Below are positions 34,419 through 61,817 of a stretch of DNA of 64,000 nt, piece after piece. The stretch spans positions 67,473,211-67,537,210 of the forward strand of contig CM054116.1 in NCBI GenBank assembly GCA_028673005.1, in the 5' to 3' direction. Positions within the stretch are counted from its first letter, which is position 1. Each line of letters starts with the position of its first letter. The notes under the pieces are model-generated. The model worked only from the letters and a program-made list of their open reading frames with translations. It was not told the DNA's origin and did no database searches. The translations under genes and the position numbers were made by a program. The stretch is from Tanypteryx hageni. Its lineage: Eukaryota; Arthropoda; Insecta; Odonata; Petaluridae.

Positions 34419-34616
34419 GCGCCAAACGTTTCCACAAAAATGGCAAAAGTTTATTTTCCCATAAATAAATATTAATTTAATATAAAAAAATTTAAGTTAT
34501 TGTTAATAAAAACGCTAATATTCTTTATAAAAATGTAGCAAAAATCATATTCTAGGTACACAAGGTGTTTCCTTAAAATTTTGCCATAGGCGCCATATCT
34601 CCCTGTTACGCCTCTG

Positions 34617-34624
34617 TATATATA

Positions 34625-34665
<41 letters not shown>
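34617..34665. repeat. (TA)n microsatellite at the 5' junction of the Penelope-like element
   Basis: About 49 bp of TA with one TT interruption. The Penelope-like frame becomes recognisable directly after it. Confidence 0.95.
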
Positions 34666-34670
<5 letters not shown>

Positions 34671-34760
34671 CCACCAATCTCGAACCCACCCTCGAAGACA
34701 GAAGTCCCTCTGACTCTCACCAGAACTTTTCACCCGGGGCTGCACGAAGCCCTAAATAAC

Positions 34761-35330
34761 ATGCTCGCGGCCGCCCATCCAATTCTCCTTAACACACCCA
34801 CAACTACGCTACTCTTCCCTAAGCCCCCTATGATATCCTTCCGCCGACCTAGTAGTCTTGGCGACCTGCTATGGCGCAAGGAACTCCCCACCGGTCTTCC
34901 ACCTTCCCCCGCAGGTTCCTCCCCTTGTAAAAGACCACATTGCCTCACTTGCCCCATCTTAGATACTTCTTCCTCATTTACCAGCCCCGTTACCCAAATC
35001 TCCTATCCTATCTTATCCCGCAGCACTTGTACCTCCAAAAACGTAATATATCTTCTTACCTGCACACAATACCCTGCGTTCTATGTAGGCCTCACAACCA
35101 CACCCCTTAACATCCGCATGAACGGCCATCGGAATAGCGTCTCTCTTAGGCGCCCCCTTCCGGTGGCCGACCATGCGTTAACCCACTCCCTTCCCTTCAA
35201 TAGCTGCTTCACAGTAAAAACTATTCGTGCTCTTCCAAGTAGTTTCCCCGCGCCACAACTCCGTCAATGGGAACTAGCCCATATTGACATCCTCCGCTCC
35301 CTCTCCTTACCAGGTTTAAACCTTCGCTAA
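34761..35330 (+). CDS. GIY-YIG endonuclease of a Penelope-like element (C-terminal part of the polyprotein)
   Basis: The frame runs to TAA at 35328-35330 and is open upstream of this ATG to about 34666 (HPGLHEALNN precedes it), so the Met is internal, not a true start. In order: the connector FRRPSSLGDLLWRKEL (residues 27-42), which marks the RT-endonuclease linker of Penelope-like proteins; a Cys cluster CKRPHCLTC (about residues 56-64); and the endonuclease core with VIYLLTC and FYVGLTTTPLNIRMNGHR (GIY-YIG half-motifs and catalytic Arg). The C-terminal RQWELAHIDILRSLSLPGLN has the expected acidic residue and GLN end. The enzyme nicks target DNA to prime reverse transcription. No stop or frameshift is seen in 189 codons, so the copy is young even though it lacks RT. 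Confidence 0.88.
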   Translation: MLAAAHPILLNTPTTTLLFPKPPMISFRRPSSLGDLLWRKELPTGLPPSPAGSSPCKRPHCLTCPILDTSSSFTSPVTQISYPILSRSTCTSKNVIYLLTCTQYPAFYVGLTTTPLNIRMNGHRNSVSLRRPLPVADHALTHSLPFNSCFTVKTIRALPSSFPAPQLRQWELAHIDILRSLSLPGLNLR

Positions 35331-51900: not shown

Positions 51901-53835
51901 AACCTAAAGATGAAAAATTATTTTTAAAAGTCATATTTTTCAAAAATCAAATTATTTGAACCGCGGGGTGTTAATGTTCTCATTTATGGAACAATAATTC
52001 TATATGAAATGTTCCTAATACCAAAATGAGCTATAATTGACATTTGATTCGCATTTTATTCATACCTCCTCCTCTACTTTTGAGTTACGTAAGTCTCAGG
52101 CCGAAAAATTCTCTCTAACTCATCCCTTATAGCAACACCTATTTGCGAAGAGATCTAAGCCGATCCTACCTCACAGTAAAACATCAGAGGAATTCCAACG
52201 CCCCTTTTTTCCTACGGGCTCTATTCTTTTATGCGAAGAATCCTCACTTCTCACCGCATTCCGTATTCCTTTTTAACTCCTACACTCCCTTTCCGTCGCA
52301 TACCCATTGCATCCATCTCCGGTCTTATCTATCTGATCCGCAAGGGAGAAAGAAGTAAGCGGGACGGGTCTTCCTTTTTTCCTCATCCTCTCTCCCGTTC
52401 TTCGCGCCACGGGGAGAATTGGAGCCTCAGGCGGGACATCTGAGAGGATATAAGGTTGGAAATATATCCTCTTGAATGCTGCTGCGGAGGAGAGGAGAGA
52501 TGGAGAGGATTCACTGTTAATGGAGGGAGAGGAAATGGCAGAACTGGAAGAAGAAGAAACGGAGAGAGAAGGAAAGAAATGGAGTTGGGAAGGGAGGGGA
52601 GGGAAAAGGAAGATCGGAGGAGAAAGTTGTGGGACGCTTTGGTTGCCTTGAGACAAAGTACGCTCGGTGGGGAAGCTTAGGTAAACGAGATGGAGGTAAG
52701 GATGTATAGAGGGATAGTATGAGTGTGTGAATATGTGTCATTATACTTATGAACAAACACAAACACAGTCGAAGGTTTACGTGTATAATTATATATTATA
52801 TATACACGCAAATTTGGATATATATATACGCGCGCAAGCATGTCCTCTCACGTTTTCTCAGTCTCGGTGAAAACATCGTACAAACGTTTAATACCATAAT
52901 CCATATCACTTCGATTCCTGAGATTCGTTTCACTTGTTGAAATGAAGTCGCACGGATGATTTCCCAGACGCGTCATAACTTTGAGGAAACGGCCCTTCGA
53001 GTAAACAAGGTAGATTAGTTCCCATGCGTGCCATGACAAATGTAATCAGAGGTGGAAGGTTTAAATAGTCTAGTTTCTTAACCAAAATGCCTCTGTTTTA
53101 TTCCCATTGGGAAGAAAATTTATTTGGAGAGAGGCCACTCAAGATTTGTGCTTTTTTAAAACCAGCGGGATGGAATTCGCAATCTGCTCCCATGTTATGT
53201 CCTATTCAGAAGGAAAAGGAAGATTGCATGACATCCACATACCGACGAGTCCGAATTATGTTTTCGGAATAAATGGAAACTCTGTTTCGTAGAAAAAAGG
53301 TACACAGGATACTTTGAATTTTCAGCTGTGATAATTTAAACATTCCATTTCCCTGAGAGAAAAATTAGTTTATTAAAGGTTCAGGAAATTAGTGAATATA
53401 TTTCTTGAAACACCTGAGGCTGTATAAAAAATGCTGAACTGAAAATTTATGCATAAGACATAATTTCCTCAACTTTCCATTTTGAAAATGTTGAAGTATT
53501 TTGCGTTAGATTTCCTGCCAAAACATTGCGATTATTTTTGTAAAGATAGAAATAATCTCACAACGGGAGAAAATGTCGAAGGTTTGCGTGTCAAATGAGT
53601 TGGTTAATAATTTCTGTGGAACAACTGTCAAAAGTAATAAACTCGGAACCTAAGGGAATGAAACGAGAATTCACGTGACGTGACGTCAGAGCAGGTAGAA
53701 AGGTTGGAGCCATCTGGTCCCTTGCCAACGTCCCCAGCAAAGGGATTAAGTTCTTACTTCCATTCTTTCGTATGCCTTATCGGTGAATAAAGGTTAAGTC
53801 TATGGATTTATCGAGAGTACGATAGTAATCTCTCG
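48987..53835. other. Non-coding stretch, no gene recognised
   Basis: Mostly AT-rich; CpG-richer at 50270-51480, purine-rich at 52480-52640 and a TA/CGCG-rich run at 52785-52840. ORFs up to 129 codons (51099-51488) show no known domain. A pair of CCGTGTTAT boxes at 49800-50095 hints at a decayed repeat that I could not delimit. Confidence 0.45.
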
Positions 53836-53935
53836 CCGTGCTTTCCTTTATAACCAGGGTTCGAACCCACGATCACAAAATGATAAATACCCAGCATCTG
53901 AGCACGATGTAAGTACTAGGCTTAACAGGGCAGTA
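53836..53935 (-). repeat. Probable tRNA-derived SINE relic
   Basis: On the minus strand CGTGGGTTCGAACCCTGG is a perfect tRNA B box/T-arm, preceded at tRNA-like spacing by ATCGTGCTCAGATGCTGGG, which resembles a D-arm to anticodon-stem segment. The A box is poor and no target duplication was found. Confidence 0.4.
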
Positions 53936-54054
53936 TCCTTAATGAACTAATATACTGGATTACTGTCTACCAAAGTTTTATCATGTGTTCTATTTATGGA
54001 ATATTAAGACTGGGCTCAAGAATTTATTTAACTAGCTTGATTTACGACTTGTTA

Positions 54055-54114
<60 letters not shown>

Positions 54115-54256
54115 TAAAATGAATTTAAAAGCATTAGTCCAAATAATATATATCTATGCATTGGAAATTTAAAAAGGAGTCACGCAACTTTAGTTTTATT
54201 TAGATTTGTAAATAGTGATTTTCTATCAGACATATATTCTAATTCAGTTTTATTGA
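53936..54256. other. AT-rich spacer with (TA)n
   Basis: A (TA)n run of about 54 bp lies at 54058-54111; nothing else recognised. Confidence 0.6.
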
Positions 54257-54300
54257 TAACTAGATAATTGCCCGGGCTTTGCCCCGGGTTTAGAGTTTTG
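54257..54300 (+). repeat. GC-rich hairpin motif at a repeat edge
   Basis: ACTAGATAATT is followed by GCCCGGGCTTTGCCCCGGG, which folds into a CCCGGG / CCCGGG hairpin. Together with ACTAG it resembles the edge at 6111 and may be the 5' edge of the repeat whose tail lies near 58050. Confidence 0.4.
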
Positions 54301-54463
54301 AATTTTTCATGCACATATCACTCGGTAATATTTTCATCCAAACTCAAGGTTCTCTCAGGTAAGGGACTAATATTCCCCTTTAATTGTTATGAACAAATTA
54401 AATATAGATTCAAATTTGATAGCACCTTCCCCCTCCTCACCAAGAAATCAAAGTTCTGACATT

Positions 54464-54750
54464 GAGGTGTGGGGGGTGGGGGTGAGGGTGGGGATAGTGG
54501 TGGTATTGAGGGTGGTGGTGAGTGTGGCGGTGGTGAGGGTGGTAGTGGTGAGGGTGGTAGTGGTGGTGAGGGTGGTGGTGTTTAGGGTGATGGTGGTAGT
54601 GAGGGTGGTGGTCGTGAGGGTGGTAGTGGCGTTGTTGAGGGTGATGGTGGTGGTGAGGGTGGTGGTGGTGGTGACGGTTATGGTGGTTGTGAATGTGTTG
54701 AGGGTGGTGGTGTGGGTGGTGATGGTGAGGGTGGTGAGTGTGATGGTGAG
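54464..54750 (+). repeat. GGT/GAGGGT minisatellite, about 285 bp
   Basis: An irregular array of GGTGGTGAGGGTGGT-type units, almost free of C on the + strand. It opens a Val/Arg-rich spurious frame. The G spacing would allow G-quadruplex formation on the + strand. Confidence 0.95.
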
Positions 54751-55475
54751 ATAATGATGAAAACGTGTTCAGACTATCTCAAAACGTGTATTTCCGTTGA
54801 AATCTCGAAATCGATTTTTTTATGAAAACAATACTTTCCCCGTAATACGTATGAAGTAAGTAAAGAAGAGAAGAAAAATGCACACACCATACGTGCATAC
54901 ATGCGAGGCAGAGGCATTCTTTACGATTTATGTAATCATGTCAAAAAAGAAAATATCAATGGCTTAATATAGTGTCTATGAACTGAAATGCCAGTAGTGA
55001 TGCCAACGAAATATCGAATTTTCGATTCGCCGATTAATTTCCTTATCAAGTGGCTCAAATTGTTGGGCTACTTTTGGAAATGACTGTACAATATTACACA
55101 GTACTTTATTTCATGAAATTTGCTTTTGTATTTATTTTTTAAGCTATCAAAAGTTTGTTGGTAACAAGTAGGAAAAAACAATAACTTCGTCAATTCATTT
55201 AGACATTTAGTTAGGTGCCTATTGAGATCCGGCAATTTTTTTTATTAGAATACGTAGCGTAGTTCATCTGCTATTTGAATTAAAAATAACGTAAGCATAT
55301 TTGCGCCTTTTTTAGTAAGATATTTTGAAAGAAAGACATTTTTTGCATGTCTTTGCAAATGTTTATAATTTATTACTTTCAGGATCAACAGACGAATATT
55401 ATTTTGTCCAGGAAGAAGTTATTTAATATAATGCAAGAAAAATCGGCACAATATTTACAATTTTAGTGTGCAAAT
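54751..55475. other. AT-rich sequence upstream of the Transib-like relic
   Basis: Should contain the 5' end of the Transib element if it is present. I found no convincing CACNNTG-type terminus paired with one on the right side. Confidence 0.4.
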
Positions 55476-57398
55476 TTGAAAAATAACATACTTGAATTAA
55501 TCAACGTCCAAGGGGAACTATCAAAGGCGATTTCACAAATTTTAAGTCGATTTACATCCGATTTTAAAACAACATATTCTCAGCGGAAATTTGGTAGATT
55601 TCTTAACAAAAACAATAAGACGGACGTCATGTTCCCTGTATTTCCACCAACTCCAACATCGCGGTCCGGTCGCCCTGCAGCGGAATTTCATGAGAGTACC
55701 GAGAGATCTAAACGAAGGAAAAGCTGCGATCTGAAGCGTGTCCTTTGGAATTGACATACGCTGCTCAAATGAGTCTTCGTAGTGTAGGAAAAGCGGACGC
55801 TGCAAATAACGTAAAAGATATCGCATTTACGACACCAACTCGAGCTATGAAATACAGGAAAACCTTCAAAGAAAGAACAACCCATATTCATATGCTGCCT
55901 ATTGATGAAGCATTGTCTAAGCTTATCGTAGCTAAACTGACGCGGCATTAGTATAAAATTATCAGAGAAAAGGAGAAGACGCGCTTTCCCCCATACTACT
56001 TGCTAAGAGAGGCGAAAAATGTGCTCCCCCGCTTCAGATATTTCTATTACGGACACAAGTGCTGATGTCAAACTTCAAGCTCTTCTTGATCACACAACTC
56101 AGCGCATCATTCAGGTACAAAAAGAAGTTATAAAAATATTGACCTCCACAGAAATGGAAAATTTGTATTTGATCTCCAAATGGGGCAGCGATGGTAGCTC
56201 GGGACAAAGCCGATACAAACAGATTTTTAGACGATCTTAGTACTGATATGAATATTTTCATAACGTCTTTGGTCCCTCTACAGTTAATATGTGGAGATCC
56301 TGACCTCTCAAATAAGAAAATTGTCTGCAAAAACCCAATACCATCTTCGCCACGGTTTTGCAGACCAATTATGATTGAATTTCTTCATGGATCTACAGAA
56401 GCAACTCGACGTGAAATGGAGGTAGTTGAAAATGAAATCGAAAGACTAGTTTATTGATCAATTACGCTAAATAAAATGTATATTAAAGTTCATCACGTAA
56501 TGCTATTCACGATGATTAATGGTAAAGTGTGCAACGCAGTGACTTCGGCCACATCTACTTAGAGGTGTTATTTTTGTGGAGCCACATCTAAAGACTTGAA
56601 TAAATTGGATCAAATACTGATGAAGCCAGTGGACTAAACAAAACTAAGATTAAGTTTATTCACTCTCCATGCGTGGATAAGATTCTTCGAGTGCTTGGTA
56701 CACATGTCTTATGAATTAGTAATTAAAAAGTGGCAAGCGCGAACAGACAAAGACGAGAAATGTGGCTGAAAACAAAAAAGCAATTAAAGGAAAAAATGGG
56801 TTTACTAGTTGATCGCCCTAAACCTGGTTACGGTAGTACGAACGATGGCAATACGGCTCGACGGTTTTTTGAAAACGCAATGCTATCTTTGTGTATAACC
56901 GGAATGGATGAAAAACCTATTGAGCATTTCAAATTAATTTTAATTATTCTATCCTGTAAATACGACCAATATAAAAAAAATTGAAAAATATGCACTAGAC
57001 ACTGAAAGATATTTTGTAGAGATCTATCCATGGCATAATATGCCAACAACAATACATACAATTTTGATTCACAGCCCTCAAGTTATATCTTCATCGATTT
57101 TACCAATAGGACAACTATCAGGAGAGGCACAAGAGGCGCGAAATAAAGATTTTAAAAAGTATAGAGATTTTCTAGAAAATGTTCTCGAATAGAAACTATG
57201 AAAGACGTGATGCACTTACTTATCATCTCTTCGAATCCTTATTTATCAAGTCTACCAAAACTTCCGAAGAAAAAGTATAAGAAAGTTCCAAGCGAGGTTG
57301 TGGAAATAATATTGTCTCCAGATATAAGTGAAACGTCTCAAGAAGAAGAGACAAACTCAGAATCTTCCAGTTACTCAGAATGTTTATCGTCAGATTAA
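55476..57398 (+). pseudogene. Transib (RAG1-like) transposase, multiply frameshifted
   Basis: Pieces in three frames line up as one protein of about 640 residues. In order: a GRP-containing basic segment (SGRPAAEFHESTERSKRRKS, about 55658-55717), comparable to the RAG1 nonamer-binding region; LTYAAQMSLRSVGKADAANN (frame changed); IDEALSKLIVAKLTRH; VKLQALLDHTTQRI; KWGSDGSSGQSRYKQIF with the likely first catalytic Asp at 56190-56192; SSPRFCRPIMIEF; a zinc-knuckle-like CYFCGATSKDLN at 56566; KEKMGLLVDRPKPGYGSTND then GNTARRFFE at about 56800-56870; YPWHNMPTTIHTILIHS; and LPIGQLSGEAQEARNKDFKK at about 57099-57158, which aligns with the RAG1 block holding the last catalytic Glu (Glu retained). It ends in an acidic Ser-rich tail. 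At least six frameshifts and several stops (near 55953, 56455, 56560, 56635 and 57190) make it dead. Confidence 0.85.
56968..57192 (+). pseudogene. Segment of the Transib relic with the catalytic-Glu region (no ATG)
   Basis: A 74-codon open stretch without a start codon links the GNTARR and LLIISS blocks. It contains EKYALDTERYFVEIYPWHNM and the IGQLSGEAQEARNKDFKKYR block. It stays open only because the frame shifts before (about 56970) and after (about 57190). It is listed separately because it carries the most diagnostic RAG1-like motif. Confidence 0.8.
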
Positions 57399-58051
57399 AC
57401 AAATAAATTTCTACACTTACAATTGATTTGTTAATTAATTTTGAATATGGTTATTTTCTTCATAATGATCCTGTTTCACCACCACTATGCAACTATTTTT
57501 TGTCATTACCGTAGCATTTTGTTTTACTACCTTTTTGTAGTTGCATGATTACTAATATATCAAAAAAAGGAGTAGCACCAATTATAATATTGATTTTAAT
57601 TTTGGCCAAGTTTTTTAAAAAAATTTACGGCTCGAAAATGTGTCTCATCAAAACAATGATATTAGTAAAGGTTTCATCGAAATCGGTCAATTCGTTGCCG
57701 AGATATATTTTAAAAACAGAAATTTGAACCGGCCATTGCGTTATGACCTTTCGACCCTGTATACCGACTTTGTATATTTTCGCCTCGAAAACGTCGGATC
57801 AAAATATTGATATTGGTGGAGAATCCATCAAAATCGGTCAATTGGTTGCTGAGATATCTTTAAAAAATGGATCAACCGTTCTATGGAGACCCCTCGGGCC
57901 TCCGTGTGCCTATTTGAATTGTTTTTGGCACTAGAACTCATGATCAATCTAAAGCAGCTACCAAATTTTGAAACGCTTAAGTTAATTTTCTGAAGAGTTA
58001 CGACTGCCACAGATACACACACACACACAGACAACTTCTATTATTAGAGAT
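57399..58051 (+). repeat. 3' sequence with an internal 85-bp diverged repeat and a (CA)n tail
   Basis: Two copies of a block beginning CTCGAAAA-CGT and ending ATCGGTCAATT-GTTGC-GAGATAT lie at about 57632-57717 and 57785-57870. Beyond them are (CA)n at about 58015-58030 and TTCTATTATTAGAGAT. Blocks of this wording are common near the ends of dispersed invertebrate repeats. Whether this is the 3' part of the Transib element or a separate repeat is unresolved. Confidence 0.5.
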
Positions 58052-59175
58052 AATTACGGAAATGCAACATTTTCTGCCAAAAAAATAAACAGCTTTATAC
58101 CTATTCGAAACCCTGAAAACTCCCTCTCAGCAAGGTCGCACATCCCTTTTCAATGTTAGGATTTTGGGAAGCCGCAGAAAAGAGCAGGCTGATTTTTTCA
58201 TTTTTACGCGAGCTCTGCGGCGAACTTAAACGCGAAATTTTTATATAAGTATTTTAACAATTTCTTTTCCGTAGGCGATCCCGTCCTTTTTCGGAATCGA
58301 TTTTTTTCACTCGTGGTTCTTATCGGCGTCTGTTCAATTTACATGACCGGATGATCCTCTTCAGCCATCTTAATCGAATAGAAGTTTACATTATCCGTAC
58401 AGATTCCAATTCTAAACGGAAAAGAACGTGAAAAAAGTGTCGTTCCTAGGGAGAACGGTGCAAATCATTATTTCCCCTTTTCTCTTTCTCTCATCAACTT
58501 CTCTCTCCCTCTCTTTGCCCTCCGTCGTTTGGCTAGCCTAGACGAACATGTAGCCTCAACAGAAAATCGATTCGCCTGCACTCAGTTCCCATTAGACTCT
58601 CGGATACTGTGCGGTGCGACTTGGTACAAGAAAAGAAGCATGTTTTTCTCTGGCTCTCAAATGTTAGTCGGTACTAGTACTGCCAAATCTTCTGAAACCT
58701 CGGAAGGAATGTGAAGCTACAGAATGTTCCTTCCCCTTTCCGTGCTCCCTTTAAACTCTTATCACTGTGATTTGCTCCTAGCAGAACACTCCAACCTCTC
58801 CCCCACCACGGTCAACGTGTTTTCTCTGCGGCGTTGCTACTTCTAGTTTTAAAAGATTTGGCGCATCAGTCGTACATGCTCTTGAAAGAGTGACGATTCA
58901 GATGATTCGGGGGTTTGGCAACACAGCGTAAGGCAGGAGGCACGAAACCACTCCTGCAAACCCGCACCTCCCTTATTCACTGCCGAAGCAGCGCCGCTCA
59001 CACCCTCAAGGTCAGGTCTTCAGAAGTTGTGGTGGGATAGTATGTCCATCGAGAGCCAAGGTGAAGACCCTTTGATATTTCCTCATATTGCGAATCCTTC
59101 CGCGAAACGATTCGCTACGGTAACCCAAACCGGAGGAATACGCACGACGCTTATTCCCTTAAACCTTTCTCTAGC
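58052..59175. other. Non-coding stretch, nothing recognised
   Basis: No gene or element end supported; a CT-rich patch lies at 58470-58530. Confidence 0.5.
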
Positions 59176-59260
59176 TTAGGGGTGGCCAATCTGGACCTGA
59201 TCAGGAGTCAATATATTTCTATGAACATCACCGAAGAGCCGCACTAGCATGTAATAAGCT
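59176..59260 (+). mobile_element. Possible hAT element terminus
   Basis: TTAGGGGTGGCCAATCTGGA followed by GAAGAGCCGCACTAGCATG resembles hAT ends of the CAGGGGTGGCCAA type with a GCCGCA box. The matching right end and target duplication were not found. Confidence 0.35.
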
Positions 59261-60083
59261 GATAAAATACATTCAACACATAATGTATCTGCTGTAGCAT
59301 ATCTTACATATAGTTTTCCAGTTCTGTTTGTTCTGTCTGTCTGTGTGAGACGCTGACGTCATCAATGGCACTTTTTAACGCTTGTTTAACATACTTTCCG
59401 ATTCGGTGGAAGTTTTAAATTTCGCAGGAATGTTTGATTTAGATATAAAAATTAAATGAAAGACTACAAAAAAAGACCAGGGTTCAACTCCAGGGGGGCG
59501 ATTTCCATTTCCCGTAAGATAACACAAAAAATAGACTTTTTAAAATGCAGGCTTTTATTCTTTTGGAAATTAAAATTTGAAACAATTGACGTAGGATCTT
59601 CGAATTTAAACTGTTCTAGGAAAATTACTTAAGTTCCTTATTCTATTCATCTTTTTCCGCCTACCGTTCGAAATTTCTCATATTGAACATTTAAATGACA
59701 TATTTTGGGAAAACATCGGCTTTTAAAGGTGATGTTGTCTTGCCGACCACATCTTTGTTAAACTTCGAGAATCAATTGTTGTCACAACCCGCATACGTGT
59801 AATATATACGAGTGCACAGATTGCCTTAAATTATCGTAGGATTTTTGCGAAATTACGTAATCCTAATGGGACTGGGATTTAGTTTGGAAAAATCTAAACG
59901 ACTATATAGATGTAGAGTAAGAGAGAGGGGGATGTGGGGAGGGAGATCGGAGGGAAGGGATAGAGAATGGAAGGTACAAAGAGAGTAAGGGAGGTACAGA
60001 ATTAGAAAAGGACGGGAGGAAAGAGAAAAAGAGGGAGACGGATAAAAAGAGGGAGAGCTATGGATTGTGACAGGCGAGAATGA
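59261..60083. other. Non-coding stretch, purine-rich at the end
   Basis: Purine-rich from about 59920 to 60080. A lone B-box-like GGTTCAACTCC at 59489 has no A box upstream. Confidence 0.5.
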
Positions 60084-60213
60084 GAGATAGATAGATAGAT
60101 AGATAATCGTCTTTATTCGGGCGAAATTTAGACCATAAGGTCCATTCTTACATTTAACCCTTCGTCAATATAATAAATATAAGAAATGGTAAAGTAAGAT
60201 ATTACAAGAGAGG
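60084..60213 (-). mobile_element. LINE 3' tail with (GATA)n (copy 2)
   Basis: Minus strand: GAATGGACCTTATGGTCTAA, TTTCGCCCGAATAAAGACG, then (ATCT)n at 60084-60104. Unique 3' UTR, an AATAAA-like signal and a terminal tetranucleotide repeat are the layout of CR1/L2-type LINEs. It aligns with the tail at 45425. No coding part remains. Confidence 0.55.
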
Positions 60214-60325
60214 GGGAGGTGAGACAAAAAAGAAGCAGAGAGGGAGGGAGAGAGAGAGAGGGAAGGAAAGAGAAAGGAAGGGAGGGAGGGAGAGAGGGAC
60301 GGCGAGAGGGAGGGAAGGGGCTCAT
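60214..60325. repeat. GGGA/GAGA purine tract
   Basis: Low-complexity GGGAGGGA/GAGA sequence on the + strand. Confidence 0.95.
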
Positions 60326-61817
60326 CATTTATCATATCTTACTGATTTTTTGTATCGAAATCAAATATATTTGGAATACTTTTATCATAATCCCGTCATA
60401 TTTGACGGGCAGTTACGCTAGTAAAAATAATAAAAACAAGAACTTACTTTTTATTTAGTGCGACTTCCGGAAATCTTTGACTTAAAAAATTCCCTTACGC
60501 ATTATAATCGGAAAATTACGGTATACGTAAGTTTCAAAGAGACATCGGAGCCAGCGGATGGCTACTCCTGCTCACCCATCTCCGCCTCCATTCCTCTCCC
60601 ATTTCCCTCCTCCCATTCTCCTCCCCACTTCTCCCCTACGAATGACATATTCTCCCCTTTTATTTGCACTTGACTCCTTCTCCTCCTCTCTTCCTTCCCT
60701 TTTCCCCTCCTCTCTGTTCCCCCAACCCGCCCACCTCCTTCACCGCTGCCGCTCCGATGGTCCTTCCCATTCCCGGCGCGCAGACTGCACGTCCATTTAC
60801 TTGTACGGTCTTCTTCTACCTGCGGACACAATGTCGCCGCTTTTTCCTAGGCCGCTGGTTGCTCCCTCGTTCTCGACACAATGGGAACGGCGGATCTAGG
60901 CCACACTACTTTGGGGAAGGAAGGTAGAGAGAGAGAAAGAGAGGGGGAGGATAGGGAATACGGATGGGCAGAACTATCTTACATGATGGCACATAAAAAC
61001 GATTCGGGTGGAAGGTATGTACGGCATTCTCGCAAAATTTATTTTTTTGGTGGGGAAATTTTTATTCATATCGCTCGGACTATGCAAAACGCTTAAGATC
61101 CGAGAAAAAGTTAAATGGTGAAAAACGGGCGTCTTGAATGAGGTCGAAGAGGTCAGCAAGAAGATAATACGTGTATAGTGGGAGGAAGGAGAGAAAAAAG
61201 AGAGAATGCAGACATCGTACCTACGAGGAATCCTTCAAAATTTCAGCATATTTCTCGAAATGTATGGCGATAATATCAAGCACGCTCTCACGCATGGCTG
61301 CTTTGCATGAAAAAATTATCCAAACTAGAACGCGCGCACGCGATATCGCACTGAGAGCATGATAAATTATTCATTTATATTTATGGAATAAAAACATCGG
61401 GATTGTAGACCTAAAGGCGTTCAAAACGAGAAACCACAATTTGATCCACAATGCAACAAACTGAAAACACTTTAATTATATATGTGGATTCAATAAAGAA
61501 TACGCGACACAAAATATCTGGAACATAAACGATTTTTATGTATGTACTCTGAATATTTAAAACGTTACAATACATAGCTAATTGACTGCCGAGGTAAATT
61601 TATTAATTAGCATCCGTAAATATACTACACTATATTGTCAGCTACGTGGGCAGGCATATACATAAGAACCTCGTAAAAGGAATAAAGCCAAAAAGATGAA
61701 TGACTGTTTACTTTAATAAGATGTAATCATCTATGTATATATAAATTTTCAGTTTTTACTGTGGAAATGTACCTACTATACATTATAATAATATTTTTTC
61801 TTAAAAACGTGGTCATT
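60326..61817. other. Non-coding stretch, nothing recognised
   Basis: Pyrimidine-rich at 60570-60760, where frames overlap on both strands; AT-rich later. No gene supported. Confidence 0.5.

What the first reader, a model, noticed from the sequence alone, without database searches (positions are those of the whole stretch)
55476..57398. Dead Transib/RAG1-like transposase traceable end to end
Six or more frameshifted pieces in fixed order carry motifs that align with the RAG1 core: a GRP-containing basic segment, KWGSDGSSGQS with the first Asp, a CxxC zinc knuckle, GNTARRFFE, and IGQLSGEAQEARNKDF with the last Glu. Transib is the transposon family from which RAG1 of the vertebrate V(D)J system derives. 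At my alignment of the second catalytic position the relic has His near IMIEFLHGS, so that residue is uncertain.
Basis: partly seen in the sequence, partly recalled or inferred. Interest (0 to 1): 0.8.

Follow-up and report, generated by a model that had tools for sequence, protein, structure and literature searches.

The report
Dead Transib DNA transposon copy
This stretch is the broken remains of a common kind of jumping gene whose enzyme is a distant relative of the vertebrate antibody-shuffling enzyme RAG1; it is a genuine fossil but an ordinary one.

Summary
The + strand from 55404 to 57398 is a decayed Transib transposase gene that can be followed over nearly its whole length. A frameshift-aware alignment to a profile of 120 relatives covers profile columns 1-684 of 687 and scores 1103.9; 13 control stretches or strands and 6 column-shuffled profiles gave at most 23.8. 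It has 7 frame changes and 5 in-frame stops in that alignment. The only solved structure it matches at E up to 1 is the HzTransib transposase (E 2.5e-73); RAG1 is reached only weakly, through a profile of relatives. So it is Transib, not RAG1 or RAG1-like. The first Asp, last Glu, CxxC, HxxxxH and GRP remain. No terminal inverted repeats or target duplication were recognised, no RAG2-like gene was detected nearby, no second copy was seen in the window, and the host genome search did not complete. Ordinary: one dead copy of a superfamily known from many insects.

The parts
55404..57398 (+). Decayed Transib transposase gene, covering profile columns 1-684 of 687, with 7 frame changes and 5 in-frame stops in the alignment; TAA at 57396-57398 after the last aligned codon
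   Evidence: Frameshift-aware profile alignment, score 1103.9 versus at most 23.8 in controls; HzTransib match E 2.5e-73
55383..55403 (+). Possible further N-terminal codons after a CAG that could be a splice acceptor (55380-55382); tentative
   Evidence: By eye only: TNII before LSRKKLFNIM in one frame, and SGSTDEYYFV in another, resemble the N-termini of relatives such as P0018 and P0089
55668..55676 (+). GRP motif in the basic N-terminal segment
   Evidence: Coordinates; G in 114 and R in 115 of 120 relatives; in register with GGRPR of RAG1, but at -0.1 bits, which is no evidence by itself
56190..56192 (+). First catalytic Asp codon (GAT), retained
   Evidence: Asp in 118 of 120 relatives
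56518..56520 (+). Second catalytic position: Asn (AAT) where relatives have Asp
   Evidence: Asp in 117 of 120, Asn in 3 of 120; aligned to TMIDGK of HzTransib; the same column falls on Asp of RAG1L and RAG1, in weak alignments (14.9 and 8.0 bits)
56566..56577 (+). CYFC, first zinc-ligand pair (CxxC), retained
   Evidence: both Cys in 120 of 120
57055..57072 (+). HTILIH, second zinc-ligand pair (HxxxxH), retained
   Evidence: His in 119 and 120 of 120
57133..57135 (+). Catalytic Glu codon (GAG) in EARNKD, retained
   Evidence: Glu in 119 of 120; aligned with NESGNK of RAG1

Best explanation
A decayed, immobile copy of a Transib cut-and-paste DNA transposon. Its ancestor encoded a transposase of about 680 residues with an RNase H-type DDE active site, a split zinc-binding site and a GRP-containing basic N-terminus; such an enzyme cuts the element out at its inverted repeats and inserts it with 5-bp target duplications (established for Transib and RAG, not shown here). 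After insertion this copy was no longer maintained and drifted: frame changes, stops and loss of conserved residues, including the second catalytic Asp, so it should make no working transposase. Shown: homology, order and lesions. Inferred: the former mechanism and neutral decay.
For: HzTransib matches for single pieces and for the X-joined reading. 646 proteins at E up to 1e-3, the best 4.6e-162 with 44% identity over 98% of the query; 12 of the 120 listed carry an organism name, all of them insects. Profile alignment over columns 1-684 of 687 with 7 frame changes and 5 stops. 12 of 104 near-invariant columns are changed, against a mean of 1.36% and a maximum of 7.5% in the 120 relatives, none of which reaches the relic (the columns were chosen on those same relatives, which biases their figure down). 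Two crude clocks agree on about 5-6% substitutions per site since constraint ended: 5 stops, with 4.3% of random substitutions making a stop in 660 codons, give about 5.8%; the excess change at near-invariant columns gives about 4.8% (my arithmetic).
Against: No terminal inverted repeats or target duplication recognised: the best CAC...GTG pair scores 16.5, inside the 14.5-19.5 of 30 overlapping placements elsewhere in the window. No second copy in the window, and the host genome search did not complete. The profile's relatives were found with the relic itself, so profile and hit are not independent; HzTransib in the PDB is. The defining second Asp is absent.
Confidence: 0.97

Rival explanations
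1. A decayed RAGL transposon (RAG1L plus RAG2L), the closer kin of vertebrate RAG, rather than Transib.
For: Transib and RAG1L share the catalytic core: a profile of 20 relatives reaches RAG1L 6b40 (1e-12) and RAG1 chains (2e-7 and weaker) in the PDB, and 11 of those 20 relatives match Pfam RAG1.
Against: The relic itself matches only HzTransib in the PDB at E up to 1, and the relatives' profile matches HzTransib at 2.8e-176 against 1e-12 for RAG1L. No Pfam family at E up to 0.1 in six frames 3 kb either side.
Confidence: 0.01
2. A domesticated Transib-derived host gene, still read through splicing or recoding.
For: Zinc ligands, two of three catalytic residues and 92 of 104 near-invariant columns remain.
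Against: 7 frame changes and 5 stops spread along the gene, most of them within the part aligned to HzTransib, and more change at near-invariant columns than in any of the 120 relatives. Transcripts and orthologous loci were not examined.
Confidence: 0.01
3. A younger or intact element whose frame is broken mainly by errors in the genome assembly.
For: Uncorrected long-read assemblies carry small indels, which change frame; nothing here tests the assembly.
Against: Five in-frame stops and 12 changed near-invariant codons are codon differences, not frame changes.
Confidence: 0.02

Closest known systems
HzTransib of Helicoverpa zea (PDB 6pqn and five further entries; element described in PMC1852546)
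   Same: Same motif order across the core: query positions 148-628 aligned to chain residues 11-484, E 2.5e-73
   Different: HzTransib has TMIDGK where the relic has TMINGK, and the relic's frame is broken. PMC1852546 reports a 3518-bp element with TIRs and a 5-bp TSD (passages seen); no such ends were recognised here. That the PDB chain is the H. zea protein is recalled; one search names it only as a DNA-mediated transposase
Insect Transib-like proteins in the protein search (P0001 to P0120; the 12 named ones come from Temnothorax, Sitophilus, Osmia, Macrosiphum, Gryllus, Leptopilina, Nylanderia, Amyelois, Diabrotica and Chilo)
   Same: 36-45% identity to the relic over 72-100% of it; GRP, D, D, E, CxxC and HxxxxH columns conserved
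   Different: They are uninterrupted predicted proteins; the relic is not. A few are themselves altered at catalytic columns (Asn at the first Asp in 2, at the second in 3 of 120). Nearest in the tree is P0003, of unnamed origin, support 0.92
RAG1 and RAG1L
   Same: With RAG1L, all three acidic columns and the zinc-ligand columns of the relatives' profile fall in register; with RAG1, the second Asp, the Glu and the two His do (the first stretch of each is weak, 14.9 and 8.0 bits)
   Different: Only remotely similar to the profile (1e-12 at best), not matched by the relic itself at E up to 1, and no RAG2-like partner detected

Membership tests
Transib superfamily | Transposase sequence closest to Transib transposases | tested here: met
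Transib superfamily | DDE catalytic triad | tested here: not met
   First Asp and Glu present, second Asp replaced by Asn. This bears on activity, not on descent: the copy is filed as a dead descendant of Transib, not as a working one
Transib superfamily | Zinc site, CxxC and HxxxxH | tested here: met
   56566-56577 and 57055-57072
Transib superfamily | Terminal inverted repeats with a CAC..TG-type heptamer | tested here: inconclusive
   No CAC...GTG pair beyond 30 overlapping placements elsewhere in the window (ends with a mutated CAC would be missed); CACWRTG not enriched in the window, 18 found against 13.8 expected, 20 of 100 shuffles as high
Transib superfamily | 5-bp target-site duplication | tested here: inconclusive
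   Ends not located
Transib superfamily | Single gene, no RAG2-like partner | tested here: met
   No Pfam match at E up to 0.1 in six frames of 52400-55401 and 57400-60401 with stops read as residues; a badly decayed partner could be missed
RAGL (RAG1L-RAG2L) transposon | Convergent RAG2L gene | tested here: not met
   with the same caveat
RAGL (RAG1L-RAG2L) transposon | Core closer to RAG1 or RAG1L than to Transib | tested here: not met

The most novel reading that the evidence does not exclude
The second catalytic Asp was lost while the frame was still open, so that the copy for a time made a DNA-binding but catalytically dead transposase that could have damped its relatives; Asn also stands at that column in 3 of 120 relatives, one of them P0020. 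Nothing here orders the Asp-to-Asn change against the frame lesions.
Probability: 0.03. Interest if true: 0.3.

Novelty: new member of a known kind. Interest (0 to 1): 0.1.

Why it matters
Little beyond annotation. It adds one dead copy, at most 45% identical to any of the 120 best relatives listed, to a superfamily known from many insects, and cannot by itself say anything about the origin of RAG.

Tried and rejected
Ends of the element: one search lists 44 inverted-repeat pairs in 54200-58900 (the 25 longest shown, no control given), none of which I could read as element ends; a targeted scan for CAC...GTG ends with 5-bp duplications stayed inside its control range. A second copy in the window: DNA self-comparison of 54001-59000 with the window gave only a 94-base pair of stretches downstream of the gene; the joined reading gave no other place below E 1.2; the relatives gave nothing below E 0.011 outside the relic in the 50 rows printed. 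Many of those rows fall on 58785-58890, so I scanned the window again with the frameshift-aware profile (70 stretches of 2500 bases, both strands, the last 300 bases left out): only the two stretches holding the relic exceed 25; 58601-59200 scores 20.8, within the background of the window (third-best of 70 is 23.7), though just above 20 shuffles of itself, at most 20.6. I treat it as chance.

Pfam on the seven pieces: nothing above a curated cut-off, best E 0.07. PF26100 is listed beside many relatives but did not appear when 3 and then 20 relatives were scanned, so I did not use it. RAG2-like or other genes in the flanks: none. tRNAs and Rfam families in the window: none. Host identity: not established.

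The 652-residue reading took one stretch (56649-56714) in a frame that the relatives do not support; one search places that part in the neighbouring frame. If anything this lowers the scores.

Full report
What was checked. The region was read in all frames. Three pieces searched singly against all solved structures each hit the same chain first, a DNA-mediated transposase, 6pqn_A, which I know as HzTransib, at 2.8e-11, 6.4e-11 and 6.6e-16; unrelated chains follow at E 0.2 or worse. Joined in order with X at stops and frame changes, the reading matches that chain over query positions 148-628 at 2.5e-73 and no other chain at E up to 1. In the large protein database 646 proteins match at E up to 1e-3, of which 120 are listed; the best has 44% identity over 98% of the query. 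Of the 120 listed, 12 carry an organism name, all insects; the others carry none.

End to end. A profile of 687 columns was made from the 120 relatives and aligned to bases 54601-57600 by a script that allows frame changes. The alignment runs from 55404 to 57395, columns 1 to 684: 660 columns matched (368 identical to the consensus), 17 deleted, 7 taken up by frame changes, 1 codon inserted; a TAA follows at 57396-57398. Five matched codons are stops. The score is 1103.9. Controls: six other 3-kb stretches on both strands and the reverse strand of the region itself (13 values) give 18.0-22.7, and six column-shuffled profiles give 17.9-23.8. A later scan of 70 overlapping stretches gives 962.2 and 523.6 for the two that hold the relic and at most 23.7 for the other 68. 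The count of frame changes depends on the penalties chosen; an eighth may lie near 55408, where two frames both resemble the N-terminus of relatives (by eye).

Residues. Conservation in the 120 relatives and coordinates: first Asp, 118 of 120, retained at 56190; second Asp, 117 of 120, Asn in the relic at 56518; Glu, 119 of 120, retained at 57133; two Cys, 120 of 120 each, retained; two His, 119 and 120 of 120, retained; G and R of GRP, 114 and 115 of 120, retained. That the second Asp is the one in TMIDGK rests on its conservation and, where a profile of 20 of the relatives puts that column on the Asp of GYDEK in RAG1 (a stretch of 8.0 bits, not significant alone) and of MVDEK in RAG1L (14.9 bits). 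That GYDEK holds D708 of mouse RAG1 I recall and worked out by counting back from the zinc cysteines; it comes from no call. So two of the three catalytic residues survive.

How dead. 12 of 104 columns that are at least 95% conserved are changed in the relic; in the 120 relatives the mean is 1.36%, the maximum 7.5%, and none reaches the relic. The columns were chosen on the same relatives, which lowers their figure. The five stops, with 4.3% of random substitutions making a stop in these codons, suggest about 5.8% substitutions per site since constraint ended; the excess change at the near-invariant columns suggests about 4.8%. Both are rough and mine. In the tree the relic pairs with P0003 (support 0.92) on a terminal branch of 0.57 against a median of 0.29, as expected for a decayed copy; by search score P0001 is the first hit instead.

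Transib, not RAG. The relatives' profile gives 2.8e-176 to HzTransib, 1e-12 to RAG1L (6b40) and 2e-7 or weaker to RAG1 chains. [quoted passage not shown] PMC4411706 (passages) also-bp duplicates typical of Transibs. No Pfam family was found at E up to 0.1 in six frames of 3 kb on either side, stops read as residues, so no RAG2-like partner is seen.

Ends and surroundings. No end pair of CAC...GTG type stands out: the best scores 16.5, while 30 overlapping placements of similar size elsewhere give 14.5-19.5. Downstream lies a stretch with two copies of a 75-base unit, starting at 57642 and 57793, and upstream, at about 54450-54760, a GGT-rich simple repeat; I guess that the element, if whole, ends within these bounds, but this is inference. 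No second copy was seen in the window. The host genome could not be searched: seven identical requests did not complete.

What is known. HzTransib is reported in PMC1852546 as 3518 bp with TIRs and a 5-bp TSD, 34% identical to transib5 of Drosophila melanogaster (passages), and Transib is reported among the abundant superfamilies of the wasp Leptopilina boulardi in PMC6035795 (passages). The original Transib-RAG1 paper (PMC1131882) is not held, so what I know of it is recalled. Three paper searches were run, none aimed at this particular copy, so I make no claim that it is or is not in print.

Verdict. A correct and well-made observation of an ordinary thing: a dead Transib copy, with one misplaced catalytic residue in the reading.

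Noticed in passing
34590-35330: An open stretch of 246 aa whose motifs (CPILDTSSSF; NVIYLLTCTQYPAFYVGLTTTPLNIRMNGHR) look to me like the C-terminal part and GIY-YIG endonuclease of a Penelope-like retroelement; recalled resemblance only, no Pfam match at E up to 0.01.
   Followed up: partly
57642-57716 and 57793-57867: Two copies of a 75-base unit, 80% identical, start-to-start spacing 151, of unknown family.
   Followed up: partly
58785-58890: Many Transib relatives give weak translated matches here (E 0.011 at best in the 50 rows printed), around STCFLCGVATSSF; the frameshift-aware profile scores 20.8, within the window's background. Probably chance.
   Followed up: yes
54270-54760: A CCCGGGC-type palindrome followed by a GGT-rich degenerate simple repeat.
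   Followed up: no
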